From: Aphelocoma coerulescens | Lineage: Eukaryota; Chordata; Aves; Passeriformes; Corvidae | Reading direction: 5' to 3' | Assembly (NCBI RefSeq): GCF_041296385.1 | Contig: NW_027184083.1 | Coordinates: 3,348,001 to 3,412,000 of the forward strand | DNA length: 64,000 bases | Shown: positions 1 through 64,000 of the stretch, one piece after another | How positions within the stretch are numbered: position 1 is the first letter of the stretch | Layout of the letters: every line of letters starts with the position of its first letter | Position numbers and translations under genes: made by a program | Notes under the pieces: generated by a model | What the model was told of the DNA's origin: nothing | The model's input: only the letters and a program-made list of their open reading frames with translations | Databases searched by the model: none

Positions 1-1559
1 CCAAGAGGATGACACAGCCACAAGAGCTGATGGCTGAACTGATCCGGAAGGCTAGGATCCGGATCAGAGAGTTATCAGGATGTGACTTCGACTGCATCCA
101 CGTGCCAATTAGGAAAAAAATGGGCCAAATTCCTAAGGCGATGTTGGAGAGTCTGCTTCAAGATTGTGAAGCATTGCAGTTTGCTCTGGAGGGCTACACA
201 GGCCAAATTTCTTTGCATAGGCCAGCCCACAAAATATTCAATTCGGAAGTTCAATTCGAATTAAATATAATAAGTGTTCGGAGCAAGGAACCTCTAAAGG
301 CCTTGACAGTTTTTACTGACGCGTCCGGGGCGACTTGGAAAAACGCCCAAACTCAGCGGTGGGAGACTGACATCAAAGAGGTAGAAGGATCGCCTCAGGT
401 TGCTGAGTTGGACGCAGTCGTCAGGGCTTTCGAAAGGTTCCCCGAACCCCTAAATTTGGTAACAGACTCTGCATATGTTGCAGGGGTAGTCTCCAGAGCC
501 GAGCACGCCATTTTGCGTGAAGTCTCCAACATGGCTTTGTATGAGTTGCTCTCAAAGTTAATAAATCTGGTCTCCCACCGAGAGCAACCATTTTACGTGA
601 TGCACGTCAGGTCACACACGGACCTGCCCGGGTTCATCGCAGAAGGCAACAGGAGGGCAGATGCCCTCGCTGCGCCAGCTGCGATGGCCCCGACTCCAAA
701 CGTGTTTGAGCAGGCCAAAATCAGCCATCAGCTGTTCCATCAGAACACTCCTGCCCTAGTTCGTCGATTCAATCTAAAGCACGACCAGGCCAGGGCGATT
801 GTGGCTGCATGTCCAGAATGCCACCAGCTAGCCCTTCCTGCCATTGGTACTGGCGCAAACCCCCGTGGACTTAACAGCTGCGAAGTGTGGCAGATGGACG
901 TGACACATGTTGCTTCATTCGGCAGAATGAAGTACGTACATGTGTCGGTTGATACCTTCTCGGGAGCAGTTTTTGCCTCTGCCCACACAGGGGAAAAGGC
1001 TAGCGATGTCCAAAAGCACTTAGTGCAGGCAATCGCTACCCTGGGCATCCCCAAAGTCATCAAAACGGACAATGGCCCAGCGTATACGTCCAAGGAGTTC
1101 AGGAGCTTCCTGCAGCGATGGGGAATAGAACACAAGACTGGCATCCCCTATTCCCCGACAGGTCAAGCCATTGTAGAGAGGGCCCACCAAAACATCAAAA
1201 GAATGCTCCAGCGCCAGTGCTCCCCCAAAAAGCTAGAGTCACCTGCTGTCAGGCTCTCAAAGGCATTGTTCACCCTAAATTTCCTCGACTGTGCCTTTGA
1301 GAACCTGAACCCACCAATCGTGCGGCACTTTGGGCGGTCTCAGCAGTTGCAAATGAAAGAAAGGTCTCCGGTGATGGTTAAGGACCCGGAGACTAGGCAG
1401 ATACAAGGGCCTTATGAACTAGTTACCTGGGGGAAAGGGTACGCATGTGTATCCACCCCCGAGGGCCCTAGGTGGATCCCATCAAAGTGGGTGAAACCGT
1501 GTATCTCCCAGACCGTCAGGAAGGGAGATCAAATACCCCCCAAGACCGGGGTAGGTTAG
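1..1559 (+). CDS. pol: U0 pol, 3' part (connection, RNase H, integrase), cut by window start
   Basis: This is the carboxy half of a Pro-Pol polyprotein whose 5' part lies before the window. The frame is already open at the first bases, so the ATG at position 9 is internal and not a start. RNase H acidic residues (FTDAS, AELDA, VTDSA and the D of RRADA), the integrase HHCC zinc motif (HQLFH with CPEC) and the integrase DDE triad (QMDVTH, KTDNG, IVERAH) are all present. An SH3-like integrase tail ends near WIPSKWVKP. The protein ends in a Gln-type variant near its C-terminus (ETRQIQ) shared with U1 and U2, where later units have Glu. Confidence 0.93.
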   Translation, partial: KRMTQPQELMAELIRKARIRIRELSGCDFDCIHVPIRKKMGQIPKAMLESLLQDCEALQFALEGYTGQISLHRPAHKIFNSEVQFELNIISVRSKEPLKALTVFTDASGATWKNAQTQRWETDIKEVEGSPQVAELDAVVRAFERFPEPLNLVTDSAYVAGVVSRAEHAILREVSNMALYELLSKLINLVSHREQPFYVMHVRSHTDLPGFIAEGNRRADALAAPAAMAPTPNVFEQAKISHQLFHQNTPALVRRFNLKHDQARAIVAACPECHQLALPAIGTGANPRGLNSCEVWQMDVTHVASFGRMKYVHVSVDTFSGAVFASAHTGEKASDVQKHLVQAIATLGIPKVIKTDNGPAYTSKEFRSFLQRWGIEHKTGIPYSPTGQAIVERAHQNIKRMLQRQCSPKKLESPAVRLSKALFTLNFLDCAFENLNPPIVRHFGRSQQLQMKERSPVMVKDPETRQIQGPYELVTWGKGYACVSTPEGPRWIPSKWVKPCISQTVRKGDQIPPKTGVG

Positions 1560-1619
1560 TCGTGTGCCTCTCTGAGCCCCGAGCCCCAAGTTTATCCCAG
1601 TTGTTATCCCCAGTTTCAA

Positions 1620-1645
1620 CCTCATTTTTCTAAGTTTTGTTTTAG
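1620..1645 (+). other. Putative 3' splice acceptor for the env-type subgenomic RNA (U0)
   Basis: A pyrimidine-rich stretch ends in TTTTAG at 1640-1645, 86 bases after the pol stop, where simple retroviruses place or precede the env acceptor. The TAG of this AG is also the stop codon that closes the membrane-anchor frame upstream, so that frame is open only from the predicted exon start at 1646. The matching donor is in the leader (for example 3432). The same site recurs in every unit. Usage is inferred. Confidence 0.5.
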
Positions 1646-1948
1646 TTTGGAGACATCGGAGATGGGTCCTGTGCCGTCAGCGGATGGGGATTATCCAGGT
1701 GGACTAGATCCATTCTCCGAACCGGACTGATCTTGTTTTTTATTCTCTTGGTTGTCATAATTATGTTCGGGCTGCTGAAAAAACTGCTAACCAACATGAT
1801 TATGAGCTCATCCTCCCCTGCAGACATCAACCAAGCAGAGCTCCCCAAAGACTTTGAACTCGAGCCTATGGCCCAGGAGATGACATGGTTCGGGGACCTG
1901 TACCCGGACTCAGAGTACTGTCCCCAAGCCGAATTCATGTCATCTTAA
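1646..1948 (+). pseudogene. env: U0 env remnant: transmembrane anchor and cytoplasmic tail only
   Basis: An open frame of 100 codons runs from the predicted splice acceptor to TAA. It starts with a Trp/Arg-containing juxtamembrane stretch, then a strongly hydrophobic segment (LILFFILLVVIIMFGLL), two lysines and an acidic tail of about 55 residues ending FMSS. This is the layout of the end of a retroviral TM subunit: short ectodomain stub, membrane-spanning segment, tail. No surface subunit, furin site or fusion peptide can exist in the 390 bases between pol and the PPT, so env has suffered a large internal deletion. The first ATG in this frame is inside the membrane segment (1763). U0, U1 and U6-U8 have Met in the tail (NMIMSS) where U2-U5 have Thr. 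A small accessory membrane protein is an alternative reading. Confidence 0.6.
1662..1730 (+). other. 22-codon ORF at the presumed env start (U0)
   Basis: The first ATG after the predicted acceptor (GAGATGG, purine at -3 and G at +4) opens a 22-residue acidic ORF that stops at TGA 1728-1730, just before the hydrophobic segment coded in another frame. It may be the leftover start of env, joined out of frame to the env 3' end by the deletion. It is conserved in every unit, but the units are too similar for that to mean selection. Confidence 0.25.
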
Positions 1949-1953
1949 AAAAC

Positions 1954-2504
1954 TGTCCTGGGTTGAGGGGTATTCTATTACCATCCTCATGAGCTGTTGA
2001 AATCAGGTGGGGCAGTGTTTCCTTGCCTCCTCCCCCCAGACTATCTTTCTGTTAATGGCCCATCATTGTCCTGCTGCATAACTCAGAGATAACTCCCTCC
2101 AGACTATCTTCTGTTAACGAGCCTAATCAACACTTGGCCTCATGACTCATTACCCCATTGTGAGATGCTCCACCCAGAGGGAGGAACCAAGCATCCCATC
2201 GTGGATATAACTGGGACTCTGAGCACCAAAGGGGGGCTCCACTGGATTTCCAGAGGACAGGAGCTACACAGCCACCGCTGGATTTTCTGAGGAAGAGCAG
2301 ACCCCTTCTACTACAGGATCACCACTTCAGAGGATTGCAGCCACCATTCCACCAGACTGCTACCACTACCCTGCCTAACAGGGACTCAGGTTGTATCTTG
2401 ACTCTGTCAGTGTTTTCTTTTACTTTCTTTTCCTTTTCTTTAATTTCCATTAAATTGTTATTCTGACTTGGTGCCTCTCACTGGTTTGTTTTCAAACTAG
2501 CACA
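1954..2504 (+). mobile_element. Solo LTR of an unrelated, ERVL-like retrovirus (end of U0)
   Basis: This 551-bp insert begins TGTCCTGGG and ends GCACA, with TG...CA termini. It is flanked by a perfect 5-bp target duplication AAAAC (1949-1953 and 2505-2509). Units without the insert show the empty site with a single AAAAC, so the boundaries are exact. The 5-bp duplication and TGTCCTGG-type start fit bird ERVL (class III) LTRs. Inside are a perfect AP-1 palindrome ATGACTCAT (2142-2150), a TATA-like ATATAA (2205-2210), ATTAAA (2449-2454) and two copies of a short motif starting CAGACTATCTT (near 2037 and 2099). No internal retroviral sequence remains. Confidence 0.88.
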
Positions 2505-2509
2505 AAAAC

Positions 2510-2523
2510 AAAAAAGGAGGAGA
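2510..2523 (+). other. Polypurine tract (plus-strand primer) before LTR1
   Basis: Fourteen purines (A6 then GGAGGAGA) lie directly against the LTR 5' edge TGTGGG. This is the plus-strand DNA priming site and fixes the LTR start. The solo LTR's right target duplication ends at 2509, so the insertion abuts but does not damage it. The equivalents are 9927-9940 and 16789-16802, and the same bases precede each later LTR. Confidence 0.8.
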
Positions 2524-2839
2524 TGTGGGAGTGTGTTTGTTTAGTTCAGTCCAGGTCTCCCCTCTATGTTCCTTAAGTTTGGTGTACCCCAGTTGGCGCC
2601 CCCCGTATTTTATTAAAATCACCCTATATGACAGTTTTGTCTCCTCCCAGGACCCTGTCTGTCACTCTGGCACCCCTCCCAGGCTTCTGGAAAGTTCTAG
2701 CCAGGGGGCCAGGTGACTGGTCCTGGGAAAGAAGTCCCTCCCTTCCCCTGTTACAGTTGGTTCCCTTATGTGTCCCTCGTTGTGTTTGCCGCACCCTTCT
2801 CTTCCCTGGTTGGTTACTCTGTACTCCCCCGCCTTGTCT

Positions 2840-2865
2840 CCCCCCCCCCCCCCCCCCCCCCCCCC
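2840..2865 (+). repeat. Poly-C run abutting the TATA-like box of LTR1
   Basis: Twenty-six uninterrupted C residues end one base before ATAAAA. The run length varies by LTR: 26 (L1, L2, L4), 19 (L3), 21 (L5) and 27 (L6). In L7-L9 it is 16-17 C, a T, then 5 C. The other strand is a pure G run able to form G-quadruplexes. Confidence 0.9.
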
Positions 2866-2871
2866 ATAAAA
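2866..2871 (+). promoter_or_regulatory. LTR1 TATA-like box
   Basis: ATAAAA is the only TATA-like element in a sensible place: about 80 bases before the AATAAA signal and immediately after the poly-C run. Transcription would start near 2895-2900. This is inferred from position. Confidence 0.5.
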
Positions 2872-2946
2872 TCCCCTGCACGAGATCGGCAGGTGCGCTG
2901 AGTTGGGCACCCCCTGGTGGTTGAGGTCCCCCCCGTTCGGAGGACC

Positions 2947-2952
2947 AATAAA
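2947..2952 (+). terminator. LTR1 polyadenylation signal AATAAA
   Basis: A canonical AATAAA lies in the second half of the LTR, followed within about 25 bases by CTGAGCCTG and a pyrimidine-rich stretch. It would define the R/U5 boundary. It is present in every LTR of the array. Confidence 0.65.
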
Positions 2953-3134
2953 CTTTCTGGATTTAACCCAACTCTGAGCCTGCCTCCTTTCCTCCACCGT
3001 CTCCCTTTATTGCCGCGGTCCCTTGGAAGGACCCACGAGCCAGACCTCTGATCCCTCCGATATCAGAGGCTGGCCCCTGCAGCCTGCTGTGTCCCGAGCT
3101 GACCGGGCTGAGAGGGAACTGTTCCTAGGGGACA

Positions 3135-3272
3135 CAAAGGCAGCTTGGCGCCCAAGCGTGGGGCTTCCCGTTCCATCGGACCCCACGGAAGGGGCGTCCT
3201 CGGCAAAGGCAGCTTGGCGCCCGGGCATGGGGCCCCGCTTCCATCGGACCCCACGGAAGGGACTGATTGTTT
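3135..3272 (+). repeat. 69-bp tandem duplication containing the PBS (U1 leader)
   Basis: Two copies start at CAAAGGCAGCTTGGCGCCC (3135 and 3204) and run through a shared GGACCCCACGGAAGGG, so the leader has two TTGGCGCCC motifs 69 bases apart. They differ just downstream of that core (AAGCGTGGGGC against GGGCATGGGGCC). Every unit has both copies, so the duplication predates the array. Confidence 0.85.
3146..3164 (+). other. Primer binding site, tRNA-Lys type (U1)
   Basis: TGGCGCCCAAGCGTGGGGC matches the lysine-1,2 tRNA complement used by Mason-Pfizer-type betaretroviruses except for one extra G after AA. It primes minus-strand DNA synthesis. The second copy at 3215 matches less well after the first eight bases. 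Which copy was used in replication cannot be told from sequence. Confidence 0.7.
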
Positions 3273-9370: not shown

Positions 9371-9921
9371 TGTCCTGGGTTGAGGGGTATTCTATTACCA
9401 TCCTCATGAGCTGTTGAAATCAGGTGGGGCAGTGTTTCCTTGCCTCCTCCCCCCAGACTATCTTTCTGTTAATGGCCCATCATTGTCCTGCTGCATAACT
9501 CAGAGATAACTCCCTCCAGACTATCTTCTGTTAACGAGCCTAATCAACACTTGGCCTCATGACTCATTACCCCATTGTGAGATGCTCCACCCAGAGGGAG
9601 GAACCAAGCATCCCATCGTGGATATAACTGGGACTCTGAGCACCAAAGGGGGGCTCCACTGGATTTCCAGAGGACAGGAGCTACACAGCCACCGCTGGAT
9701 TTTCTGAGGAAGAGCAGACCCCTTCTACTACAGGATCACCACTTCAGAGGATTGCAGCCACCATTCCACCAGACTGCTACCACTACCCTGCCTAACAGGG
9801 ACTCAGGTTGTATCTTGACTCTGTCAGTGTTTTCTTTTACTTTCTTTTCCTTTTCTTTAATTTCCATTAAATTGTTATTCTGACTTGGTGCCTCTCACTG
9901 GTTTGTTTTCAAACTAGCACA
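9371..9921 (+). mobile_element. Solo ERVL-like LTR (end of U1)
   Basis: It is 551 bp, with AAAAC target duplications at 9366-9370 and 9922-9926. Insertion point and length are identical to the copy at 1954, so both descend from one insertion duplicated with the unit. Confidence 0.88.
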
Positions 9922-9940: not shown

Positions 9941-10559
9941 TGTGGGAGTGTGTTTGTTTAGTTCAGTCCAGGTCTCCCCTCTATGTTCCTTAAGTTTGGT
10001 GTACCCCAGTTGGCGCCCCCCGTATTTTATTAAAATCACCCTATATGACAGTTTTGTCTCCTCCCAGGACCCTGTCTGTCACTCTGGCACCCCTCCCAGG
10101 CTTCTGGAAAGTTCTAGCCAGGGGGCCAGGTGACTGGTCCTGGGAAAGAAGTCCCTCCCTTCCCCTGTTACAGTTGGTTCCCTTATGTGTCCCTCGTTGT
10201 GTTTGCCGCACCCTTCTCTTCCCTGGTTGGTTACTCTGTACTCCCCCGCCTTGTCTCCCCCCCCCCCCCCCCCCCCCCCCCCATAAAATCCCCTGCACGA
10301 GATCGGCAGGTGCGCTGAGTTGGGCACCCCCTGGTGGTTGAGGTCCCCCCCGTTCGGAGGACCAATAAACTTTCTGGATTTAACCCAACTCTGAGCCTGC
10401 CTCCTTTCCTCCACCGTCTCCCTTTATTGCCGCGGTCCCTTGGAAGGACCCACGAGCCAGACCTCTGATCCCTCCGATATCAGAGGCTGGCCCCTGCAGC
10501 CTGCTGTGTCCCGAGCTGACCGGGCTGAGAGGGAACTGTTCCTAGGGGACACAAAGGCA
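9941..10559 (+). mobile_element. LTR2, shared by U1 and U2
   Basis: The polypurine tract is at 9927-9940. The C run is 26 (10257-10282). It shares two markers with LTR1 that are absent from most later LTRs: ATTAAAATC in U3 and GTCTCCC before the U5 TTTATTG, where L3-L9 have GTCTGCC. Confidence 0.9.
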
Positions 10560-16802: not shown

Positions 16803-17414
16803 TGTGGGAGTGTGTTTGTTTAGTTCAGTCCAGGTCTCCCCTCTATGTTCCTTAAGTTTGGTGTACCCCAGTTGGCGCCCCCCGTATTTTATTAAAGTCA
16901 CCCTATATGACAGTTTTGTCTCCTCCCAGGACCCTGTCTGTCACTCTGGCACCCCTCCCAGGCTTCTGGAAAGTTCTAGCCAGGGGACCAGGTGACTGGT
17001 CCTGGGAAAGAAGTCCCTCCCTTCCCCTGTTACAGTTGGTTCCCTTATGTGTCCCTCGTTGTGTTTGCCGCACCCTTCTCTTCCCTGGTTGGTTACTCTG
17101 TACTCCCCCGCCTTGTCTCCCCCCCCCCCCCCCCCCCATAAAATCCCCTGCACGAGATCGGCAGGTGCGCTGAGTTGGGCACCCCCTGGTGGTTGAGGTC
17201 CCCCCCGTTCGGAGGACCAATAAACTTTCTGGATTTAACCCAACTCTGAGCCTGCCTCCTTTCCTCCACCGTCTGCCTTTATTGCCGCGGTCCCTTGGAA
17301 GGACCCACGAGCCAGACCTCTGATCCCTCCGATATCAGAGGCTGGCCCCTGCAGCCTGCTGTGTCCCGAGCTGACCGGGCTGAGAGGGAACTGTTCCTAG
17401 GGGACACAAAGGCA
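16803..17414 (+). mobile_element. LTR3, shared by U2 and U3
   Basis: Polypurine tract at 16789-16802. This is the shortest C run of the array, 19 (17119-17137), which accounts for the 612-bp length. It carries ATTAAAGTC and GTCTGCC markers and a CAGGGGACC variant shared with LTR4. Confidence 0.9.
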
Positions 17415-23254: not shown

Positions 23255-23340
23255 TCGTGTGCCTCTCTGAGCCCCGAGCCCCAAGTTTATCCCAGTTGTT
23301 ATCCCCAGTTTCAACCTCATTTTTCTAAGTTTTGTTTTAG

Positions 23341-23643: not shown

Positions 23644-23662
23644 AAAACAAAAAAGGAGGAGA

Positions 23663-24281
23663 TGTGGGAGTGTGTTTGTTTAGTTCAGTCCAGGTCTCCC
23701 CTCTATGTTCCTTAAGTTTGGTGTACCCCAGTTGGCGCCCCCCGTATTTTATTAAAGTCACCCTATATGACAGTTTTGTCTCCTCCCAGGACCCTGTCTG
23801 TCACTCTGGCACCCCTCCCAGGCTTCTGGAAAGTTCTAGCCAGGGGACCAGGTGACTGGTCCTGGGAAAGAAGTCCCTCCCTTCCCCTGTTACAGTTGGT
23901 TCCCTTATGTGTCCCTCGTTGTGTTTGCCGCACCCTTCTCTTCCCTGGTTGGTTACTCTGTACTCCCCCGCCTTGTCTCCCCCCCCCCCCCCCCCCCCCC
24001 CCCCATAAAATCCCCTGCACGAGATCGGCAGGTGCGCTGAGTTGGGCACCCCCTGGTGGTTGAGGTCCCCCCCGTTCGGAGGACCAATAAACTTTCTGGA
24101 TTTAACCCAACTCTGAGCCTGCCTCCTTTCCTCCACCGTCTGCCTTTATTGCCGCGGTCCCTTGGAAGGACCCACGAGCCAGACCTCTGATCCCTCCGAT
24201 ATCAGAGGCTGGCCCCTGCAGCCTGCTGTGTCCCGAGCTGACCGGGCTGAGAGGGAACTGTTCCTAGGGGACACAAAGGCA
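23663..24281 (+). mobile_element. LTR4, shared by U3 and U4
   Basis: C run of 26 (23979-24004). CAGGGGACC variant as in LTR3, so it is closest to that copy apart from run length. Confidence 0.9.
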
Positions 24282-24805
24282 GCTTGGCGCCCAAGCGTGG
24301 GGCTTCCCGTTCCATCGGACCCCACGGAAGGGGCGTCCTCGGCAAAGGCAGCTTGGCGCCCGGGCATGGGGCCCCGCTTCCGTCGGACCCCACGGAAGGG
24401 ACTGATTGTTTCCGCAAGTGCGTCATCGGGACGTCAAGCTACCCCAGCTGCAGCACGCTCCGTTTTAGTTAGCTGCGCTCCTGGGGGTGAGGACGGTAGC
24501 TTCGCCGTGCCTGCGAAGTCGTTCTCGGCAGAGGAACCGGCCGCCTGGAGCTAACCTGGACTCCAGTCAGGTAAGTATTTTTCCCCGGGGCGGGAAAAAC
24601 TTGCCTCAAAGCCGGTAAAGGCTTTCGGAGGGACCAGTGTCCCCGGCTCTTGAAGAGCCGAACGCAGGACGGTCCCCGGCTCTCGAAGAGCCGAACATAG
24701 GCTGCGCAGCCCCGGAACAAGCGCGGTTAGCTTGTCTCCGGTTGGTTTTTGGGAAAACCGGCCTTCCAGGCTTGAAGTTTAGCTCCAGACGCTGTGCTGT
24801 TGGCT
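24282..24805 (+). other. U4 5' leader
   Basis: PBS at 24285-24303, donor GT at 24571. It shares with U5 a private G-to-C change (GTTTCCGCAAG) at about 24413 that replaces Gly by Arg in the overlapping small frame but leaves the uORF protein unchanged. Confidence 0.78.
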
Positions 24806-26662
24806 ATGGGCGCTGCGCTCTCCACAGCACAGAAGGGGGTATTTCTCCAAGTTGCGGGACTCCTTGAGGGTGGGGGGATAAGTTTTTCAAAGGGATGTTT
24901 AAAACGATTTATTCGGTGGCTGTTTCTGCACTTCCCTCAGTGCTCTCAGGATACGGTTTTGACCGTTCCCTTTTGGAATGCCGCGGGAGAAAAACTGGCG
25001 CGATCTAATTCTGCCAAAGAGAAAGATTTCTCCTTTCTGTACTTGCAAATTAGATTGGCGTTAGCTAAAAAAAGGGAGAGGGAAGGACGAACAACCCCGA
25101 ATTCCCCAGTTGTTACCCCTAACCCGTCTCCCGAACCCGTGTCCCCTCAAACGGGCATGCTGAGGAGAGCAACCCGCGATGCGCAGGGCTGCCACCGTCT
25201 CCCTGGCTCTCCTCGGGATCCCCGGAGTCCCCGCTCAGACAGTCCCGGCCAGACTGCCCGAGGCTTATCCTGTTCCCCGGCTTCCCCAGTTGTTAGACCC
25301 CGAGTTCGGTTTGGCTATCCAGAGAGTTTAGAAAATGCCCTCCCTGCCCGAGGAGGACAAGATGGCGGGCGCCACGTAGCAGAAACCCCCTCTTGCTTTT
25401 CCCCGCGCTTTTCCACCCGAAATCCCTTTCTCCCGAGTCCCAACCCCTTTCTCCCCGACCCCTCCTACTCCCAAGCTGGTTCCACACCTCTTACCCCTCC
25501 TACCTGTCACCAGTGCGCGCCCCCGTGCTCCGCCCCCAGAAATCGCGGTTCCATGCCCGGCTGCCACCCACTTCCTGCTTCCGGTTCCCACGCCTGTCCT
25601 TCCGGTTCCCACGGTGTCTGGCCGGAAGGGGGGGGGGGGCCCGAGGACCGGAACCCGGAACTGGATCCCATTCCCTCGGCCGCTCCGGTTTTTTATCAGA
25701 GGTCCCGGAGAGGAGGAACAACCCATGTCAGCTGGGAACCACTCTCACACCAAACAATAAAGGAACTCTGCAAGGCACAGAAGGAGTTTGGGAGAGAAAG
25801 CGAATATTTTCGTGGCCTCTTAAAGGCAAGTCTCTCCGGAGCAGTAATGACACCTTTCGATCTGCGTCAGCTTTTCTCATGCCTTCTTTCCTCGGCAGAG
25901 TTTCTGCTCTGGAAGGCAGCGTGGGAAAGGGAGCTCCGCAGACTCCTTCCAGCGCTCTTGCAAGGTTCTGATACGGCCGTTGATGCCGACAATAAGGAAT
26001 TCACATTGGACCATCTAAGCGGCGAAGCAGATTGGGCTTTGGCGCCGAAGCAAGCTCAAGGCTTGCCTTTGGAGGTTCTGCAACAGGTCAAGGAAGCGGC
26101 CAGTAAGGCATTCCTTGGTCTGAGGCCTGATGTGCCCATAGAATCCTACTCGCAGGTCCAGCAGCAACCCACTGAGTCATTCCTAAAGTTTGTGGAGAGA
26201 CTAACCCGAGCTGTAGAGTTGCAGGTCAAGCAGCCGGCGGCCAGGGAAGAGGTCATCGCAGAGATGGCTATGGTGAATGCCAACCCTCAATGCAAGGCAG
26301 CCATCCTGAGCCTCCCCCTGGACCCCCCGCCAACCATACAGGATATGTTGGAAGTTTGTGCTGCGAAGGCACCACACCTGCAACCTACCAGCTCAGAGAG
26401 ACAGCGGCCCAGAGGAACGGCCTCAGTGGGAACAGCAACGCATCGCCCTGCAGCGGACCAGAGGAGGACCACGGGCCTGAACACCAAACCACCTCCAACT
26501 GCAAACGGCCGAAAGCGAGCCCCGCCGGCCAGGAACACCTGCTTCCTATGTGACCGGCCTGGACATTGGACAAGGGACTGCCCGCTCAAGTGGCAGTTCC
26601 AGCAATTTAAAAAGGAACATGAACCTGGGGGACAGGAGGGCCAACTGCAACAAAAAAACTGA
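24806..26662 (+). CDS. gag: U4 Gag polyprotein, full length (618 residues)
   Basis: Gag builds the particle core at the membrane. Residues 1-2 are Met-Gly with Ser-6, a myristoylation signal. Matrix covers roughly 1-100 with a basic patch (KKRERE, about 88-93). A proline-rich linker (100-290) contains YPESL at 171-175, a candidate ALIX-binding late motif, and a repeated NPFLP. Capsid runs about 300-530, with MTPFDLRQLF near 348 and the major homology region (QxxxESFxxFxxRL type) near 450-466. Nucleocapsid has a single CX2CX4HX4C zinc knuckle at 579-592; class II viruses usually have two. Twelve Gs (25628-25639) keep the whole in frame. The stop follows the slippery A AAA AAC. Confidence 0.93.
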   Translation: MGAALSTAQKGVFLQVAGLLEGGGISFSKGCLKRFIRWLFLHFPQCSQDTVLTVPFWNAAGEKLARSNSAKEKDFSFLYLQIRLALAKKREREGRTTPNSPVVTPNPSPEPVSPQTGMLRRATRDAQGCHRLPGSPRDPRSPRSDSPGQTARGLSCSPASPVVRPRVRFGYPESLENALPARGGQDGGRHVAETPSCFSPRFSTRNPFLPSPNPFLPDPSYSQAGSTPLTPPTCHQCAPPCSAPRNRGSMPGCHPLPASGSHACPSGSHGVWPEGGGGPEDRNPELDPIPSAAPVFYQRSRRGGTTHVSWEPLSHQTIKELCKAQKEFGRESEYFRGLLKASLSGAVMTPFDLRQLFSCLLSSAEFLLWKAAWERELRRLLPALLQGSDTAVDADNKEFTLDHLSGEADWALAPKQAQGLPLEVLQQVKEAASKAFLGLRPDVPIESYSQVQQQPTESFLKFVERLTRAVELQVKQPAAREEVIAEMAMVNANPQCKAAILSLPLDPPPTIQDMLEVCAAKAPHLQPTSSERQRPRGTASVGTATHRPAADQRRTTGLNTKPPPTANGRKRAPPARNTCFLCDRPGHWTRDCPLKWQFQQFKKEHEPGGQEGQLQQKN

Positions 26663-29600
26663 ATGGGGAGCGCGCGCCCGCCCCGCGTTGGAGTGGTGAA
26701 GACAAAAAAGGGACGGGACGCGAGGGGGAGGGGAAACTTAGAGAGACCAAACTATCAGACACGACTTTAAAACCGGACTTGACTTCCTTTTCTGATGGTT
26801 CTTTCAGGTTGCAGCTGTTGACACCGTTCCACCTAAAGACCAAAGAGTGGCATACCGCACCGGTAAGCGCTGGTGGTGAGCTGTGGGCAGAAGACCAAGG
26901 CCCTGACAGATATGTCATTGTCGGAAATGTTGCCTGCACACCACAAGAGATCGAAGTCGCTCCGGGACTAATGACATCCAGTCCCGAAGGACCTGTTCTC
27001 TTGCTGCACTGTGTCCACCCACCTCTTTTCCTGCCCAGAGGGCAGACAGTCGCCCAGGCTATACCTGTAGAAAGGCCACACCCAACGGTGTGTGCCACAC
27101 ATGTCATAGGGACAGAGAAGCCTCGGGTAGGCTGCGAGATCAACAGAGGGGAGGAAGTCCTACACCTCAGAGGGCTTCTGGACACAGGGGCAGATGTGAC
27201 GATCATTCCCACACGAGAATGGCCGGCACATTGGGAATTGCAGAACGTGGCTGGACACGTGCAAGGTGTTGGGGGCATTCAATTGGCCAAACAGTCAAAG
27301 AGCATCGTGCAAATCAAGGGACTGAGCGGACAATTGGCAAACATACGTCCGTTCGTATTAGACTACAAGGAACCCCTCTTGGGGAGAGACCTCATGCAGC
27401 AGTGGGGAGTCACAATTGACCTACCTGACCCCCGGAAAAATTTTTGGGCTGCGGCCACTGAAGAGCGCCCTACTCAAAAACTAAATTGGAAAACTGATCA
27501 GCCCATTTGGGTAGAGCAGTGGTCGCTCTATGGTGAGAAGTTGAAGGCGCTCGAGAAGCTCGTGGAGGAGCAACTTGAAAAGGGGAATATCGTGGAATCC
27601 AACAGCCCGTGGAATTCCCCTGTCTTTGTTATCAAAAAGCCTAACAAAGACAAATGGCGGCTCCTCCAGGACCTTCGTCAAATTAACAATGCTATTGAGG
27701 GCATGGGCTCTCTCCAACCAGGGATGCCATCCCCAACGATGCTCCCTCAAAATTGGAATCTGGCAGTAATTGACATTAAAGACTGCTTTTTCCAAATTCC
27801 CCTGCACCCTGACGATGCCCCGCGTTTTGCCTTCTCGATTCCTGTTATCAATCGAGAAGCCCCAAGGAAAAGATACCATTGGAAGGTGTTGCCACAGGGT
27901 ATGAAGAACAGCCCGACCATCTGCCAATGGTATGTCTCTTCCTTGCTTGCCCCAGTTCGCGCAGCAGCAAAAGAGGCCATCATCTTCCATTATATGGATG
28001 ATGTCCTCGTGTGTGCCCCCGACAATGACATGCTTGCCAGTGTGCTCGACCTGACAATCAATGCATTGGTTGCTGCAGGGTTCGAGCTCCAAGAGGAAAA
28101 GATTCAACGGATGCCACCTTGGAAGTACCTGGGCCTACAAATTACAAAGCGGACCATTGTGCCGCAAAAATTGGCTATCAATACCAACATCAAGACTCTG
28201 GCAGATGTCCACCAGCTGTGTGGGTCTTTAAATTGGGTGAGGCCGTGGCTGGGTCTGTCCACCGAAGACCTAGCCCCCCTTTTTGATTTACTAAAAGGGG
28301 GAGAGGAGCTTAGTTCTCCCCGGACACTCACCCCAGAGGCGCAAACAGCTCTGGAGAAGGTGCAACATCTAATGTCCACCAGGCAGGCAAGCAGGTGTAG
28401 GCCTGACTTGCCATTCAAATTCATCATCCTGGGTAATCTGCCACACTTGCACGGGGTTGTCTTCCAATGGGAAGACAACAAAAAGAAGAGCAAAAAGGAC
28501 CAGGACCGGAGGGATCCCCTCTTAATTATAGAGTGGGTATTTCTCAGTCACCATCGGTCCAAGAGGATGACACAGCCACAAGAGCTGATGGCTGAACTGA
28601 TCCGGAAGGCTAGGATCCGGATCAGAGAGTTATCAGGATGTGACTTCGACTGCATCCACGTGCCAAATAGGAAAAAAATGGGCCAAATTCCTAAGGCGAT
28701 GTTGGAGAGTCTGCTTCAAGATTGTGAAGCATTGCAGTTTGCTCTGGAGGGCTACACAGGCCAAATTTCTTTGCATAGGCCAGCCCACAAAATATTCAAT
28801 TCGGAAGTTCAATTCGAATTAAATATAATAAGTGTTCGGAGCAAGGAACCTCTAAAGGCCTTGACAGTTTTTACTGACGCGTCCGGGGCGACTTGGAAAA
28901 ACGCCCAAACTCAGCGGTGGGAGACTGACATCAAAGAGGTAGAAGGATCGCCTCAGGTTGCTGAGTTGGACGCAGTCGTCAGGGCTTTCAAAAGGTTCCC
29001 CGAACCCCTAAATTTGGTAACAGACTCTGCATATGTTGCAGGGGTAGTCTCCAGAGCCGAGCACGCCATTTTGCGTGAAGTCTCCAACATGGCTTTGTAT
29101 GAGTTGCTCTCAAAGTTAATAAATCTGGTCTCCCACCGAGAGCAACCATTTTACGTGATGCACGTCAGGTCACACACGGACCTGCCCGGGTTCATCGCAG
29201 AAGGCAACAGGAGGGCAGATGCCCTCGCTGCGCCAGCTGCGATGGCCCCGACTCCAAACGTGTTTGAGCAGGCCAAAATCAGCCATCAGCTGTTCCATCA
29301 GAACACTCCTGCCCTAGTTCGTCGATTCAATCTAAAGCACGACCAGGCCAGGGCGATTGTGGCTGCATGTCCAGAATGCCACCAGCTAGCCCTTCCTGCC
29401 ATTGGTACTGGCGCAAACCCCCGTGGACTTAACAGCTGCGAAGTGTGGCAGATGGACGTGACACATGTTGCTTCATTCGGCAGAATGAAGTACGTACATG
29501 TGTCGGTTGATACCTTCTCGGGAGCAGTTTTTGCCTCTGCCCACACAGGGGAAAAGGCTAGCGATGTCCAAAAGCACTTAGTGCAGGCAATCGCTACCCT

Positions 29601-36975: not shown

Positions 36976-37061
36976 TCGTGTGCCTCTCTGAGCCCCGAGC
37001 CCCAAGTTTATCCCAGTTGTTATCCCCAGTTTCAACCTCATTTTTCTAAGTTTTGTTTTAG

Positions 37062-37364: not shown

Positions 37365-37369
37365 AAAAC

Positions 37370-37920
37370 TGTCCTGGGTTGAGGGGTATTCTATTACCAT
37401 CCTCATGAGCTGTTGAAATCAGGTGGGGCAGTGTTTCCTTGCCTCCTCCCCCCAGACTATCTTTCTGTTAATGGCCCATCATTGTCCTGCTGCATAACTC
37501 AGAGATAACTCCCTCCAGACTATCTTCTGTTAACGAGCCTAATCAACACTTGGCCTCATGACTCATTACCCCATTGTGAGATGCTCCACCCAGAGGGAGG
37601 AACCAAGCATCCCATCGTGGATATAACTGGGACTCTGAGCACCAAAGGGGGGCTCCACTGGATTTCCAGAGGACAGGAGCTACACAGCCACCGCTGGATT
37701 TTCTGAGGAAGAGCAGACCCCTTCTACTACAGGATCACCACTTCAGAGGATTGCAGCCACCATTCCACCAGACTGCTACCACTACCCTGCCTAACAGGGA
37801 CTCAGGTTGTATCTTGACTCTGTCAGTGTTTTCTTTTACTTTCTTTTCCTTTTCTTTAATTTCCATTAAATTGTTATTCTGACTTGGTGCCTCTCACTGG
37901 TTTGTTTTCAAACTAGCACA
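37370..37920 (+). mobile_element. Solo ERVL-like LTR (end of U5)
   Basis: It is 551 bp, with AAAAC at 37365-37369 and 37921-37925. Same insertion point as 1954 and 9371, yet separated from them by three units that lack it. Confidence 0.88.
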
Positions 37921-37939
37921 AAAACAAAAAAGGAGGAGA

Positions 37940-38559
37940 TGTGGGAGTGTGTTTGTTTAGTTCAGTCCAGGTCTCCCCTCTATGTTCCTTAAGTTTGGTG
38001 TACCCCAGTTGGCGCCCCCCGTATTTTATTAAAATCACCCTATATGACAGTTTTGTCTCCTCCCAGGACCCTGTCTGTCACTCTGGCACCCCTCCCAGGC
38101 TTCTGGAAAGTTCTAGCCAGGGGGCCAGGTGACTGGTCCTGGGAAAGAAGTCCCTCCCTTCCCCTGTTACAGTTGGTTCCCTTATGTGTCCCTCGTTGTG
38201 TTTGCCGCACCCTTCTCTTCCCTGGTTGGTTACTCTGTACTCCCCCGCCTTGTCTCCCCCCCCCCCCCCCCCCCCCCCCCCCATAAAATCCCCTGCACGA
38301 GATCGGCAGGTGCGCTGAGTTGGGCACCCCCTGGTGGTTGAGGTCCCCCCCGTTCGGAGGACCAATAAACTTTCTGGATTTAACCCAACTCTGAGCCTGC
38401 CTCCTTTCCTCCACCGTCTGCCTTTATTGCCGCGGTCCCTTGGAAGGACCCACGAGCCAGACCTCTGATCCCTCCGATATCAGAGGCTGGCCCCTGCAGC
38501 CTGCTGTGTCCCGAGCTGACCGGGCTGAGAGGGAACTGTTCCTAGGGGACACAAAGGCA
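37940..38559 (+). mobile_element. LTR6, shared by U5 and U6
   Basis: It has the longest C run, 27 (38256-38282). It carries ATTAAAATC like L1 and L2 but GTCTGCC like L3-L5, so the block moved with the solo LTR ends inside this LTR. Confidence 0.9.
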
Positions 38560-44802: not shown

Positions 44803-45418
44803 TGTGGGAGTGTGTTTGTTTAGTTCAGTCCAGGTCTCCCCTCTATGTTCCTTAAGTTTGGTGTACCCCAGTTGGCGCCCCCCGTATTTTATTAAAGTCA
44901 CCCTATATGACAGTTTTGTCTCCTCCCAGGACCCTGTCTGTCACTCTGGCACCCCTCCCAGGCTTCTGGAAAGTTCTAGCCAGGGGGCCAGGTGACTGGT
45001 CCTGGGAAAGAAGTCCCTCCCTTCCCCTGTTACAGTTGGTTCCCTTATGTGTCCCTCGTTGTGTTTGCCGCACCCTTCTCTTCCCTGGTTGGTTACTCTG
45101 TACTCCCCCGCCTTGTCTCCCCCCCCCCCCCCCCCTCCCCCATAAAATCCCCTGCACGAGACAGGCAGGTGCGCTGAGTTGGGCACCCCCTGGTGGTTGA
45201 GGTCCCCCCCGTTCGGAGGACCAATAAACTTTCTGGATTTAACCCAACTCTGAGCCTGCCTCCTTTCCTCCACCGTCTGCCTTTATTGCCGCGGTCCCTT
45301 GGAAGGACCCACGAGCCAGACCTCTGATCCCTCCGATATCAGAGGCTGGCCCCCGCAGCCTGCTGTGTCCCGAGCTGACCGGGCTGAGAGGGAACTGTTC
45401 CTAGGGGACACAAAGGCA
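44803..45418 (+). mobile_element. LTR7, shared by U6 and U7
   Basis: The C run is interrupted: C17 (45119-45135), T, C5. R begins with GAGACAGGCAGG in place of GAGATCGGCAGG. Both features define the L7-L9 subfamily. Confidence 0.9.
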
Positions 45419-51665: not shown

Positions 51666-52280
51666 TGTGGGAGTGTGTTTGTTTAGTTCAGTCCAGGTCT
51701 CCCCTCTATGTTCCTTAAGTTTGGTGTACCCCAGTTGGCGCCCCCCGTATTTTATTAAAGTCACCCTATATGACAGTTTTGTCTCCTCCCAGGACCCTGT
51801 CTGTCACTCTGGCACCCCTCCCAGGCTTCTGGAAAGTTCTAGCCAGGGGGCCAGGTGACTGGTCCTGGGAAAGAAGTCCCTCCCTTCCCCTGTTACAGTT
51901 GGTTCCCTTATGTGTCCCTCGTTGTGTTTGCCGCACCCTTCTCTTCCCTGGTTGGTTACTCTGTACTCCCCCGCCTTGTCTCCCCCCCCCCCCCCCCTCC
52001 CCCATAAAATCCCCTGCACGAGACAGGCAGGTGCGCTGAGTTGGGCACCCCCTGGTGGTTGAGGTCCCCCCCGTTCGGAGGACCAATAAACTTTCTGGAT
52101 TTAACCCAACTCTGAGCCTGCCTCCTTTCCTCCACCGTCTGCCTTTATTGCCGCGGTCCCTTGGAAGGACCCACGAGCCAGACCTCTGATCCCTCCGATA
52201 TCAGAGGCTGGCCCCCGCAGCCTGCTGTGTCCCGAGCTGACCGGGCTGAGAGGGAACTGTTCCTAGGGGACACAAAGGCA
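51666..52280 (+). mobile_element. LTR8, shared by U7 and U8
   Basis: C16 (51982-51997), T, C5. Otherwise indistinguishable by eye from LTR7 and LTR9. Confidence 0.9.
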
Positions 52281-58527: not shown

Positions 58528-59142
58528 TGTGGGAGTGTGTTTGTTTAGTTCAGTCCAGGTCTCCCCTCTATGTTCCTTAAGTTTGGTGTACCCCAGTTGG
58601 CGCCCCCCGTATTTTATTAAAGTCACCCTATATGACAGTTTTGTCTCCTCCCAGGACCCTGTCTGTCACTCTGGCACCCCTCCCAGGCTTCTGGAAAGTT
58701 CTAGCCAGGGGGCCAGGTGACTGGTCCTGGGAAAGAAGTCCCTCCCTTCCCCTGTTACAGTTGGTTCCCTTATGTGTCCCTCGTTGTGTTTGCCGCACCC
58801 TTCTCTTCCCTGGTTGGTTACTCTGTACTCCCCCGCCTTGTCTCCCCCCCCCCCCCCCCTCCCCCATAAAATCCCCTGCACGAGACAGGCAGGTGCGCTG
58901 AGTTGGGCACCCCCTGGTGGTTGAGGTCCCCCCCGTTCGGAGGACCAATAAACTTTCTGGATTTAACCCAACTCTGAGCCTGCCTCCTTTCCTCCACCGT
59001 CTGCCTTTATTGCCGCGGTCCCTTGGAAGGACCCACGAGCCAGACCTCTGATCCCTCCGATATCAGAGGCTGGCCCCCGCAGCCTGCTGTGTCCCGAGCT
59101 GACCGGGCTGAGAGGGAACTGTTCCTAGGGGACACAAAGGCA
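58528..59142 (+). mobile_element. LTR9, shared by U8 and U9
   Basis: C16 (58844-58859), T, C5. Member of the L7-L9 subfamily. Confidence 0.9.
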
Positions 59143-59666
59143 GCTTGGCGCCCAAGCGTGGGGCTTCCCGTTCCATCGGACCCCACGGAAGGGGCGTCCT
59201 CGGCAAAGGCAGCTTGGCGCCCGGGCATGGGGCCCCGCTTCCATCGGACCCCACGGAAGGGACTGATTGTTTCGGCAAGTGCGTCATCGGGACGTCAAGC
59301 TACCCCAGCTGCAGCACGCTCCGTTTTAGTTAGCTGCGCTCCTGGGGGTGAGGACGGTAGCTTCGCCGTGCCTGCGAAGTCGTTCTCGGCGGAGGAACCG
59401 GCCGCCTGGAGCTAACCTGGACTCCAGTCAAGTAAGTATTTTTCCCCGGGGCGGGAAAAACTTGCCTCAAAGCCGGTAAAGGCTTTCGGAGGGACCAGTG
59501 TCCCCGGCTCTTGAAGAGCCGAACGCAGGACGGTCCCCGGCTCTCGAAGAGCCGAACGTAGGCTGCGCAGCCCCGGAACAAGCGCGGTTAGCTTGTCTCC
59601 AGTTGGTTTTTGGGAAAACCGGCCTTCCAGGCTTGAAGTTTAGCTCCAGACGCTGTGCTGTTGGCT
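59143..59666 (+). other. U9 5' leader
   Basis: PBS at 59146-59164, weakened donor with GT at 59432, hairpins as in U7. Confidence 0.8.
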
Positions 59667-61522
59667 ATGGGCGCTAAACTCTCCACAGCACAGAAGGGGG
59701 CATTTCTCCAAGTTGCGGGACTCCTTGAGGGTGGGGGGATAAGTTTTTCAAAGGGATGTTTAAAACGGTTTATTCGGTGGCTGTTTCTGCACTTCCCTCA
59801 GTGCTCTCAGGATACGGTTTTGACCGTTCCCTTTTGGAATGCCGCGGGAGAAAAACTGGCGCGATCTAATTCTGCCAAAGAGAAAGATTTCTCCTTTCTG
59901 TACTTGCAAATTAGATTGGCGTTAGCTAAAAAAAGGGAGAGGGAAGGACGAACAACCCCGAATTCCCCAGTTGTTACCCCTAACCCGTCTCCCGAACCCG
60001 TGTCCCCTCAAACGGGCATGCTGAGGAGAGCAACCCGCGATGCGCAGGGCTGCCACCGTCTCCCTGGCTCTCCTCGGGATCCCCGGAGTCCCCGCTCAGA
60101 CAGTCCCGGCCAGACTGCCCGAGGCTTATCCGGTTCCCCGGCTTCCCCAGTTGTTAGACCCCGAGTTCGGTTTGGCTATCCAGAGAGTTTAGAAAATGCC
60201 CTCCCTGCCCGAGGAGGACAAGATGGCGGGCGCCACGTGGCAGAAACCCCCTCTTGCTTTTCCCCGCGCTTTTCCACCCGAAATCCCTTTCTCCCGAGTC
60301 CCAACCCCTTTCTCCCCGACCCCTCCTACTCCCAAGCTGGTTCCACACCTCTTACCCCTCCTACCTGTCACCAGTGCGCGCCCCCGTGCTCCTCCCCCAG
60401 AAATCGCGGTTCCATGCCCGGCTGCCACCCACTTCCTGCTTCCGGTTCCCACGCCTGTCCTTCCGGTTCCCACGGTGTCTGGCCGGAAGGGGGGGGGGGC
60501 CCGAGGACCGGAACCCGGAACTGGATCCCATTCCCTCGGCCGCTCCGGTTTTTTATCAGAGGTCCCGGAGAGGAGGAACAACCCATGTCAGCTGGGAACC
60601 CCTCTCACACCAAACAATAAAGGAACTCTGCAAGGCACAGAAGGAGTTTGGGAGAGAAAGCGAATATTTTCGTGGCCTCTTAAAGGCAAGTCTCTCCGGA
60701 GCAGTAATGACACCTTTCGATCTGCGTCAGCTTTTCTCATGCCTGCTTTCCTCGGCAGAGTTTCTGCTCTGGAAGGCAGCGTGGGAAAGGGAGCTCCGCA
60801 GACTCCTTCCAGCGCTCTTGCAAGGTTCTGATACGGCCGTTGATGCCGACAATAAGGAATTCACATTGGACCATCTAAGCGGCGAAGCAGATTGGGCTTT
60901 GGCGCCGAAGCAAGCTCAAGGCTTGCCTTTGGAGGTTCTGCAACAGGTCAAGGAAGCGGCCAGTAAGGCATTCCTTGGTCTGAGGCCTGATGTGCCCATA
61001 GAATCCTACTCGCAGGTCCAGCAGCAACCCACTGAGTCATTCCTAAAGTTTGTGGAGAGACTAACCCGAGCTGTAGAGTTGCAGGTCAAGCAGCCGGCGG
61101 CCAGGGAAGAGGTCATCGCAGAGATGGCTATGGTGAATGCCAACCCTCAATGCAAGGCAGCCATCCTGAGCCTCCCCCTGGACCCCCCGCCAACCATACA
61201 GGATATGTTGGAAGTTTGTGCTGCGAAGGCACCACACCTGCAACCTACCAGCTCAGAGAGACAGCGGCCCAGAGGAACGGCCTCAGTGGGAACAGCAACG
61301 CATCGCCCTGCAGCGGACCAGAGGAGGACCACGGGCCTGAACACCAAACCACCTCCAACTGCAAACGGCCGAAAGCGAGCCCCGCCGGCCAGGAACACCT
61401 GCTTCCTATGTGACCGGCCTGGACATTGGACAAGGGACTGCCCGCTCAAGTGGCAGTTCCAGCAATTTAAAAAGGAACATGAACCTGGGGGACAGGAGGG
61501 CCAACTGCAACAAAAAAACTGA
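59667..61522 (+). pseudogene. gag: U9 gag, frameshifted at a G11 run
   Basis: It is MGAKLS-type like U7 and U8, but with eleven Gs (60489-60499), so the matrix frame ends at 60620 instead of after a long shifted tail. Capsid-nucleocapsid frame ends at 61522. The run length therefore changes even among the most similar units. Confidence 0.85.
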
Positions 61523-62379
61523 ATGGGGAGCGCGCGCCCGCCCCGCGTTGGAGTGGTGAAGACAAAAAAGGGACGGGACGCGAGGGGGAGGGGAAACTTA
61601 GAGAGACCAAACTATCAGACACGACTTTAAAACCGGACTTGACTTCCTTTTCTGATGGTTCTTTCAGGTTGCAGCTGTTGACACCGTTCCACCTAAAGAC
61701 CAAAGAGTGGCATACCGCACCGGTAAGCGCTGGTGGTGAGCTGTGGGCAGAAGACCAAGGCCCTGACAGATATGTCACTGTTGGAAATGTTACCTGCACA
61801 CCACAAGAGATCGAAGTCGCTCCGGGACTAATGACATCCAGTCCCGAAGGACCTGTTCTCTTGCTGCGCTGTGTCCACCCACCTCTTTTCCTGCCCAGAG
61901 GGCAGACAGTCGCCCAGGCTATCCCTGTAGAAAGGCCACACCCAACGGTGTGTGCCACACATGTCATAGGGACAGAGAAGCCTCGGGTAGGCTGCGAGAT
62001 CAACAGAGGGGAGGAAGTCCTACACCTCAGAGGGCTTCTGGACACAGGGGCAGATGTGACGATCATTCCCACACGAGAATGGCCGGCACATTGGGAATTG
62101 CAGAACGTGGCTGGACACGTGCAAGGTGTTGGGGGCTTTCAATTGGCCAAACAGTCAAAGAGCATCGTGCAAATCAAGGGACTGAGCGGACAATTGGCAA
62201 ACATACGTCCGTTCGTATTAGACTACAAGGAACCCCTCTTGGGGAGAGACCTCATGCAGCAGTGGGGAGTCACAATTGACCTACCTGACCCCCCGAAAAA
62301 TTTTTGGGTTGCGGCCACTGAAGAGCGCCCTACTCAAAAACTAAATTGGAAAACTGATCAGCCCAGCCCATTTGGGTAG
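61519..62379 (+). pseudogene. pro: U9 pro (protease), separated from pol by a 5-bp duplication
   Basis: Same protein and lesion as U7 and U8; duplication at about 62360-62369, TAG at 62377-62379. Confidence 0.9.
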
Positions 62380-64000
62380 AGCAGTGGTCGCTCTATGGTG
62401 AGAAGTTGAAGGCGCTCGAGAAGCTCGTGGAGGAGCAACTTGAAAAGGGGAATATCGTGGAATCCAACAGCCCGTGGAATTCCCCTGTCTTTGTTATCAA
62501 AAAGCCTAACAAAGACAAATGGCGGCTCCTCCAGGACCTTCGTCAAATTAACAATGCTATTGAGGACATGGGCTCTCTCCAACCAGGGATGCCATCCCCA
62601 ACGATGCTCCCTCAAAATTGGAATCTGGCAGTAATTGACATTAAAGACTGCTTTTTCCAAATTCCCCTGCACCCTGACGATGCCCCGCGTTTTGCCTTCT
62701 CGATTCCTGTTATCAATCGAGAAGCCCCAAGGAAAAGATACCATTGGAAGGTGTTGCCACAGGGTATGAAGAACAGCCCGACCATCTGCCAATGGTATGT
62801 CTCTTCCTTGCTTGCCCCAGTTCGCGCAGCAGCAAAAGAGGCCATCATCTTCCATTATATGGATGATGTCCTCGTGTGTGCCCCCGACAATGACATGCTT
62901 GCCAGTGTGCTCGACCTGACAATCAATGCATTGGTTGCTGCAGGGTTCGAGCTCCAAGAGGAAAAGATTCAACGGATGCCACCTTGGAAGTACCTGGGCC
63001 TACAAATTACAAAGCGGACCATTGTGCCGCAAAAATTGGCTATCAATACCAACATCAAGACTCTGGCAGATGTCCACCAGCTGTGTGGGTCTTTAAATTG
63101 GGTGAGGCCGTGGCTGGGTCTGTCCACCGAAGACCTAGCCCCCCTTTTTGATTTACTAAAAGGGGGAGAGGAGCTTAGTTCTCCCCGGACACTCACCCCA
63201 GAGGCGCAAACAGCTCTGGAGAAGGTGCAACATCTAATGTCCACCAGGCAGGCAAGCAGGTGTAGGCCTGACTTGCCATTCAAATTCATCATCCTGGGTA
63301 ATCTGCCACACTTGCACGGGGTTGTCTTCCAATGGGAAGACAACAAAAAGAAGAGCAAAAAGGACCAGGACCGGAGGGATCCCCTCTTAATTATAGAGTG
63401 GGTATTTCTCAGTCACCATCGGTCCAAGAGGATGACACAGCCACAAGAGCTGATGGCTGAACTGATCCGGAAGGCTAGGATCCGGATCAGAGAGTTATCA
63501 GGATGTGACTTCGACTGCATCCACGTGCCAATTAGGAAAAAAATGGGCCAAATTCCTAAGGCGATGTTGGAGAGTCTGCTTCAAGATTGTGAAGCATTGC
63601 AGTTTGCTCTGGAGGGCTACACAGGCCAAATTTCTTTGCATAGGCCAGCCCACAAAATATTCAATTCGGAAGTTCAATTCGAATTAAATATAATAAGTGT
63701 TCGGAGCAAGGAACCTCTAAAGGCCTTGACAGTTTTTACTGACGCGTCCGGGGCGACTTGGAAAAACGCCCAAACTCAGCGGTGGGAGACTGACATCAAA
63801 GAGGTAGAAGGATCGCCTCAGGTTGCTGAGTTGGACGCAGTCGTCAGGGCTTTCGAAAGGTTCCCCGAACCCCTAAATTTGGTAACAGACTCTGCATATG
63901 TTGCAGGGGTAGTCTCCAGAGCCGAGCACGCCATTTTGCGTGAAGTCTCCAACATGGCCTTGTATGAGTTGCTCTCAAAGTTAATAAATCTGGTCTCCCA
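62358..64000 (+). pseudogene. pol: U9 pol, out of frame with pro and cut by window end
   Basis: RT with YMDD and Pro after LPQGMKNS, APVR, the connection with HVPI, and the first RNase H acidic residues are visible before the window stops within RNase H. Confidence 0.87.

What the first reader, a model, noticed from the sequence alone, without database searches (positions are those of the whole stretch)
1..64000. An endogenous retrovirus turned into a macrosatellite: at least nine LTR-sharing tandem units and no host DNA
Isolated proviruses have two LTRs, a target duplication and host flanks. Here one LTR separates each internal region over 64 kb, period about 6.86 kb, and neither array edge is seen. 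Unequal crossing-over between LTRs explains the topology. Arrays of near-complete coding proviruses this long are unusual and would act as a satellite, as an RNA source and as a repair template for each other. Possible homes are a centromere, a sex chromosome such as the bird W, or a germline-restricted chromosome.
Basis: partly seen in the sequence, partly recalled or inferred. Interest (0 to 1): 0.9.

Follow-up and report, generated by a model that had tools for sequence, protein, structure and literature searches.

The report
W-chromosome provirus expanded into macrosatellite
One ancient virus insertion on the female-only W chromosome of a jay appears to have been copied head to tail into an array of roughly half a million bases, and a second virus that landed inside it has begun to do the same, which shows step by step how a virus can turn into satellite DNA.

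Summary
The window has nine same-strand LTRs (eight complete inter-LTR units, two partial), spaced 6.86 or 7.42 kb, and no other DNA. The element is an env-less, betaretrovirus-like ERVK.

The window is C37:3348001-3412000 of a 1.33-Gb genome.

The array fills the last 236 kb of C37 and the last 109 kb of C38 (reverse strand). Three further contigs (188 kb) begin and end inside array units. The C37 left edge and C38 right edge carry the same 6-bp target duplication, AGTCAT. The simplest reading is one provirus expanded to about 0.53 Mb (at least 67 LTRs), broken only by assembly.

The 551-bp insert in three window units is a solo LTR of a second, ERVL-like element. Elsewhere on C37, at the same site with the same AAAAC duplication, it forms LTR-sharing arrays of 3 and 7 interiors. 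States 0, 3 and 7 at one site point to LTR-LTR unequal exchange.

Neighbouring units are most alike, and units are mosaics. Shared-LTR tandems are known; this size, single-insertion origin, W location and nested array I found nowhere reported. Function is untested.

The parts
1..2523 (+). left partial unit: end of pro-pol, env-tail remnant, nested LTR, polypurine tract
1954..2504 (+). nested 551-bp ERVL-like solo LTR, AAAAC on both sides
9371..9921 (+). nested solo LTR, second copy, identical, same AAAAC site
37370..37920 (+). nested solo LTR, third copy, identical, same AAAAC site
2524..3142 (+). ERVK LTR 0 (TGTGGGAG to AAAGGCA)
   Evidence: 3' end from the C38 array edge
9941..10559 (+). ERVK LTR 1
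16803..17414 (+). ERVK LTR 2
23663..24281 (+). ERVK LTR 3
30526..31139 (+). ERVK LTR 4
37940..38559 (+). ERVK LTR 5
44803..45418 (+). ERVK LTR 6
51666..52280 (+). ERVK LTR 7
58528..59142 (+). ERVK LTR 8
31143..31229 (+). two PBS-like motifs 69 nt apart after LTR 4; the pair follows all nine LTRs
24776..26662 (+). one gag frame, 628 codons stop to stop (Gag_p24, Gag_p24_C, CCHC), ending A-AAA-AAC directly before the stop
26623..30117 (+). one pro-pol frame, 1164 codons stop to stop (RVP, RVT_1, RVT_thumb, RNase H, integrase)
30285..30506 (+). hydrophobic stretch and tail before the polypurine tract, read as an env remnant (inference)
59143..64000 (+). right partial unit: leader, gag and part of pro-pol

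Best explanation
A single env-less, betaretrovirus-like (ERVK) provirus inserted at an AGTCAT site on the W chromosome of the Florida Scrub-Jay lineage and was then multiplied in place, head to tail, by unequal homologous exchange. The exchange began between its own LTRs (inferred) and later involved whole units, with local gene conversion. This gave an LTR-sharing macrosatellite of about 0.53 Mb over five assembly contigs. Because the W has no partner over most of its length (established knowledge), exchange between sister chromatids or within a chromatid is the likely route. A later ERVL-like insertion in one unit was copied with its unit and itself expanded and collapsed in the same way (0, 3 and 7 interiors). 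Shown: array structure, both outer edges with one target duplication, nested copy states, mosaic units, similarity falling with distance. Inferred: the order of events, the sister-chromatid route, the species name, and that the three gap contigs belong to this array. Each LTR is placed to act as 3' LTR of one unit and promoter of the next; expression was not tested.
For: Nine LTRs with no host DNA between units. The C37 left flank ends AGTCAT directly before the first LTR, and the C38 right flank starts AGTCAT directly after the last LTR; chance by base composition 2.6e-4. The contig ends read (both ends of C331, C349 and C522, and the array end of C38; 2 kb each) lie inside units, and C37 also ends inside a unit. 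Nested element with 7, 3 and 0 interiors at one site with one target duplication. Adjacent units are the most alike: 988 of 362,880 orders as good in the window; over 25 C37 units the mean difference rises from 8.8 at lag 1 to 22.6 at lag 10, Mantel r 0.356, reached by 1 of 10,000 permutations. At least seven recombination events among the eight complete window units.
Against: The middle of the array is not assembled, so one array is inferred. The interiors of C331, C349, C522 and most of the C38 array were not read; their tandem nature rests on probe and pattern positions. Exact repeats in the nested arrays reach 11,585 bp against a mean read of 14.55 kb, so 3 and 7 are less certain than the existence of nested arrays. 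The C38 array is not pure: one interval holds at least 7.7 kb of another element. No reads, depth or expression were examined. The direct gene test for W linkage did not complete (and repeats).
Confidence: 0.85

Rival explanations
1. Assembly artefact: near-identical dispersed W proviruses were chained into a false tandem.
For: The W is full of related ERVs (26 dispersed pattern matches listed on C34-C38 against 12 elsewhere), and the contigs break inside units.
Against: Units differ from each other and exact repeats in the window stop at 4,725 bp, well under the 14.55-kb mean HiFi read. A false chain would not be expected to give similarity that falls with distance or matching target duplications at two far edges.
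Confidence: 0.05
2. The ERVK array began as a ready-made multimer: a circular or concatenated copy integrated, or was amplified as extrachromosomal DNA, before homologous exchange took over.
For: LTR-sharing units and one target duplication fit this equally well for the outer element.
Against: For the nested element, 0, 3 and 7 interiors at one site with one target duplication require change after integration, so a separate mechanism for the outer array is not needed.
Confidence: 0.06
3. C37 and C38 hold two separate arrays at two W loci, and the AGTCAT match is chance.
For: No assembled sequence joins them. C38 and C331 have 9.18-kb spacings that are not seen on C37.
Against: A chance 6-mer match is about 1 in 3,800. 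Each array lacks its other edge and stops at a contig end, in the orientation that one array requires. The C38 edge LTR differs from some C37 LTRs by only 1-3 substitutions.
Confidence: 0.04

Closest known systems
HERV-K108 (7p22.1) tandem provirus (PMC4149278, passages seen)
   Same: ERVK proviruses head to tail with a single shared LTR in the middle
   Different: Two units; here at least 67 LTRs over about 0.53 Mb, with a second element nested and tandem
Three tandem full-length Kronos_I ERVs in the chicken chromosome 32 centromere core (PMC9974502, passages seen)
   Same: Tandem full-length ERVs in a bird genome
   Different: Three copies on an autosomal dot chromosome; the passages do not say whether LTRs are shared. 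Centromere role not tested here
Cassandra tandem arrays in plants (PMC7215508, passages seen)
   Same: [quoted passage not shown] unequal crossing-over discussed as a cause of copy-number change
   Different: A 12-repeat product of about 6 kb from elements without gag, pol or env; here about 6.9-kb units with gag and pol, in an animal, with both outer edges found
HINT1W 5,648-bp unit, tandemly duplicated 52 times on the chicken W (PMC9974502, passages seen)
   Same: Kilobase-unit macrosatellite on a bird W; GC 53.6% there, 54.2% in the window (from base counts)
   Different: The unit holds a host gene, not a provirus

Membership tests
LTR-sharing tandem provirus | one LTR between successive internal regions, no target duplication inside | tested here: met
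   nine of nine window LTRs have the polypurine tract before and a PBS-like motif after; no other DNA in the window
LTR-sharing tandem provirus | one target duplication around the whole | tested here: met
   AGTCAT at the C37 left and C38 right edges; continuity between the two contigs is inferred
Macrosatellite | kilobase units in a long tandem array with local homogenisation | tested here: met
   25 complete ERVK units on C37; mean difference rises with distance
Macrosatellite | copy number varies between individuals | not testable with these tools
   one assembly only
ERVK / betaretrovirus-like | gag p24, protease, RT with thumb, integrase of this class | tested here: met
   Pfam hits; database relatives annotated as ERV group K; integrase closest to 7usf and 3jca among solved chains (that these are MMTV is recalled)
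ERVK / betaretrovirus-like | env gene | tested here: not met
   no env-sized frame; only a short tail
ERVK / betaretrovirus-like | dUTPase before the protease (recalled trait) | tested here: not met
   no dUTPase match up to E = 10 in 26623-27420
ERVL-like (nested element) | spuma-like RT, no env, 5-bp target duplication | tested here: inconclusive
   RT closest to Pr125Pol entries 7o0h, 7o0g and 7o24 (that these are foamy virus is recalled); AAAAC duplication; gag-size and pol frames fill the interior; no tree made
Centromere core | CENP-A binding | not testable with these tools
   no chromatin data
Germline-restricted chromosome sequence | absent from somatic tissue | not tested
   PMC11631490 assigned the matching scaffolds to the W by depth in 25 females and 25 males and by homology

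The most novel reading that the evidence does not exclude
The array is a working part of the W: its centromere core (as three Kronos_I copies are on chicken chromosome 32) or a female-limited source of ERV RNA and piRNA. It is kept uniform by exchange between sister chromatids on a chromosome that otherwise hardly recombines, and later ERV insertions into it are amplified in the same way.
Probability: 0.12. Interest if true: 0.92.

Novelty: new variant of a known kind. Interest (0 to 1): 0.74.

Why it matters
It is a readable case of how one transposable element becomes satellite DNA: both ends of the original insertion appear to survive, and a second element caught inside shows copy-number steps (0, 3, 7) at one fixed site. 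It sits on a female-limited chromosome, so unit variants in mothers and daughters would measure exchange between sister chromatids on a bird W. It also bears on the 'refugium' view of the avian W (PMC8310711, passages including part of the abstract seen): some of the ERV load there can come from DNA-level amplification of few insertions, so counts of full-length ERVs may overstate retrotransposition. It would explain why two W scaffolds of this assembly end where they do.

Tried and rejected
Independent proviral insertions: rejected, because no target duplication or host DNA separates units and one nested insertion is shared by several. Selection on the coding frames between units: not supported; 15 of 42 coding differences are synonymous against an expected share of 0.296 (p = 0.40; one further difference involves a stop codon). 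Rfam search of 23200-38700 found 0 families; ARAGORN found 0 tRNAs in the window. One scan of viral contigs found no relative. Telomere repeats: 0. My first LTR end was 7 nt short; the C38 edge corrected it. A direct gene test of W linkage (PF13907, PF12374) and a genome-wide count of the nested LTR did not complete; the W call rests on matching the published assembly. That paper speaks both of 5 W-linked scaffolds and of 5 additional ones; C34-C38 are five contigs and sum to its 41.5 Mb. Literature searches listed no title on an ERV array of this size; they cover open-licence PubMed Central papers only, and I opened passages of ten papers. PMC5411765 (crowSat1) is not held, so a relation to that 14-kb satellite was not checked.
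Full report
What is in the window. All but 21 of the 64,000 bases lie in 20-mers that occur at least twice, and no 20-mer occurs on both strands. Nine LTRs occur, each after a polypurine tract and before a PBS-like motif, giving eight complete inter-LTR units and a partial one at each side. Pieces of the frames of one unit hit Gag_p24, Gag_p24_C, CCHC, RVP, RVT_1, RVT_thumb, RNase H and integrase models. The gag frame read ends in A-AAA-AAC directly before its stop, with pro-pol in the -1 frame, the usual form of a frameshift site (established knowledge). No env-sized frame is present. A short hydrophobic stretch with a tail before the polypurine tract is read as an env remnant, an inference. 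Of the eight complete units, two keep both long frames uninterrupted; gag is split in six and pro-pol in three. Gag splits lie at a G homopolymer, where consensus errors are also likely, so the true number of open units is uncertain.

The nested insert. Three units are 556 bp longer. The extra DNA is a 551-bp LTR-like sequence, TGTCCT...AGCACA, with AAAAC on both sides, identical in the three copies; the flanks without it equal the short units exactly.

The genome around it. The window is G000:C37:3348001-3412000 of a 1,330,612,911-base genome in 660 contigs. A 1-kb probe had 728 candidate places, of which 40 were scored; all 40 were 98-100% identical and lie on C37, C38, C331, C349 and C522. 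A 30-base LTR-start pattern has 105 exact matches, of which 100 are listed. Of the listed rows, 62 lie in tandem on those five contigs, 26 are dispersed on C34-C38 and 12 lie elsewhere (my count of the rows). In that paper the W-linked scaffolds have about twice the depth in females and gave no alignments to the paternal assembly. The species name, and that C37 and C38 are among those scaffolds, are my inference from these matches. A protein tree made before this was known placed the RT-IN piece with two Corvus sequences (100/100 support).

The edges. The array starts on C37 at 3193212. Before that LTR there is no polypurine tract but other DNA, ending AGTCAT. From there to the contig end are 26 LTRs. 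On C38, of 3,082,033 bases, the array runs in reverse from the contig end to 2972885, where ...AAAGGCA is followed by AGTCAT and non-array DNA. The two outer flanks thus carry the same six bases, as one provirus would leave; by base composition the chance is 2.6e-4. Both ends of C331, C349 and C522 and the array end of C38, 2 kb each, lie inside units. If all five pieces belong together, the array has 235,996 + 109,149 + 78,473 + 74,707 + 34,982 = 533,307 bases. The LTR count of at least 67 is 62 listed pattern rows, four probe matches on C522 and the C37 edge LTR. The placing of the three gap contigs is inference. C331 and C38 share 9.18-kb spacings, two each; in the one such C38 unit read it is a 2.33-kb internal duplication. 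The array is not everywhere pure: one C38 interval of 18.6 kb holds at least 7.7 kb of a third element with protease, RT, RNase H and integrase hits.

The second array inside the first. Left of the window on C37 the nested LTR recurs at 5.85-5.91-kb spacing: eight LTRs from 3261738 to 3303293 and four from 3310159 to 3328253. In each set the first LTR has AAAAC only before it, the last only after it, and interior LTRs sit between GGGTGGATAA and TAATTTGGCGCC, the sequences at the two ends of its own interior. The nested LTRs at 3335118 and 3342539 and the three in the window are solo. All seven sites are the same position of an ERVK unit. The ten nested interiors differ at 0-6 substitutions in aligned pieces of about 5 kb; the first LTR of each set has one difference from the window copy and the others none. 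The nested pol has RT, RNase H and integrase hits, and its RT is closest to Pr125Pol entries among solved chains, so I call it ERVL-like. One insertion, copied with its host unit and now present with 0, 3 and 7 interiors, is what LTR-LTR exchange predicts, gains and losses both.

How units relate. In the window, unit pairs differ at 1-31 substitutions in up to 5.4 kb (the last unit is partial). Adjacent units are as alike or more so in only 988 of 362,880 orders of the nine, and at least seven recombination events are needed among the eight complete units. Over 25 C37 units, in about 4.0 kb each, the mean difference rises from 8.8 at lag 1 to 22.6 at lag 10; Mantel r 0.356 is reached by 1 of 10,000 permutations and the adjacent mean by 0 of 10,000. 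The synonymous share does not differ from neutral. The picture is local, recent unequal exchange and conversion.

Age. The two edge LTRs differ at 5 substitutions; the C38 one is 611 bases long. With the crow rate used in PMC7341801 (0.0158 per site per million years, passage) this is about 0.26 million years; slower avian rates recalled from memory give one to two million. Conversion between LTRs can shift this either way.

Can the assembly be trusted. The published reads are HiFi with mean 14.55 kb, assembled with Hifiasm. Exact repeats reach 4,725 bp in the window, so its unit order should be resolvable. On the C37 array they reach 11,585 bp, in the nested arrays, so 3 and 7 are less certain. 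The assembly breaks inside units, as expected for an array longer than the reads, and would do so for a false chain too. No reads were examined here.

Comparison. Shared-LTR tandems are known: HERV-K108 with two units and Cassandra arrays in plants with up to 13 LTRs; three tandem Kronos_I copies form a chicken centromere core. This is the same kind at far larger scale, with the original insertion's ends apparently still readable, on a W chromosome, and with a second array nested at one site. The ten literature searches named under Tried and rejected listed no report of it. Function, expression and centromere status are untested.

Noticed in passing
window 3146 and 3215 (and the same pair after all nine LTRs): Two PBS-like motifs 69 nt apart (TGGCGCCCAAGCGTGGGG and TGGCGCCCGGGCATGGGG; tRNA-Lys-like, recalled), each preceded by AAAGGCAGCT, as if the LTR end and PBS had been duplicated.
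   Followed up: partly
window 2840, 10257 and seven more: A C homopolymer of 16-27 bases in every LTR just before a TATA-like CCCATAAAAT, differing in length between units.
   Followed up: no
window 26623-27117: About 165 residues before the protease match no Pfam family even at E = 10, where betaretroviruses carry a dUTPase (recalled).
   Followed up: partly
L051:1310-9000 (C38:3055310-3063000): A third LTR-type element of at least 7.7 kb lies inside a C38 array interval; one frame has protease, RT, RNase H and integrase hits.
   Followed up: partly
L052 (C38:3008501-3017000): A unit with a 2.33-kb internal duplication, copies 99.9% alike; 9.18-kb spacings occur twice on C38 and twice on C331, so this variant seems to have spread.
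   Followed up: partly
G000 C34-C38 against other contigs: Dispersed exact LTR-start matches: 26 listed on about 41 Mb of W-linked contigs against 12 listed on the remaining about 1.29 Gb.
   Followed up: partly
L026:356-2059 (C37 just left of the array): Opposite-strand RT and protease frames of another ERV lie within 3 kb of the array's left edge.
   Followed up: no
C37 right end and C38 right end: The matching target duplication suggests that these two W scaffolds are neighbours separated only by the array, a join the assembly does not make.
   Followed up: partly
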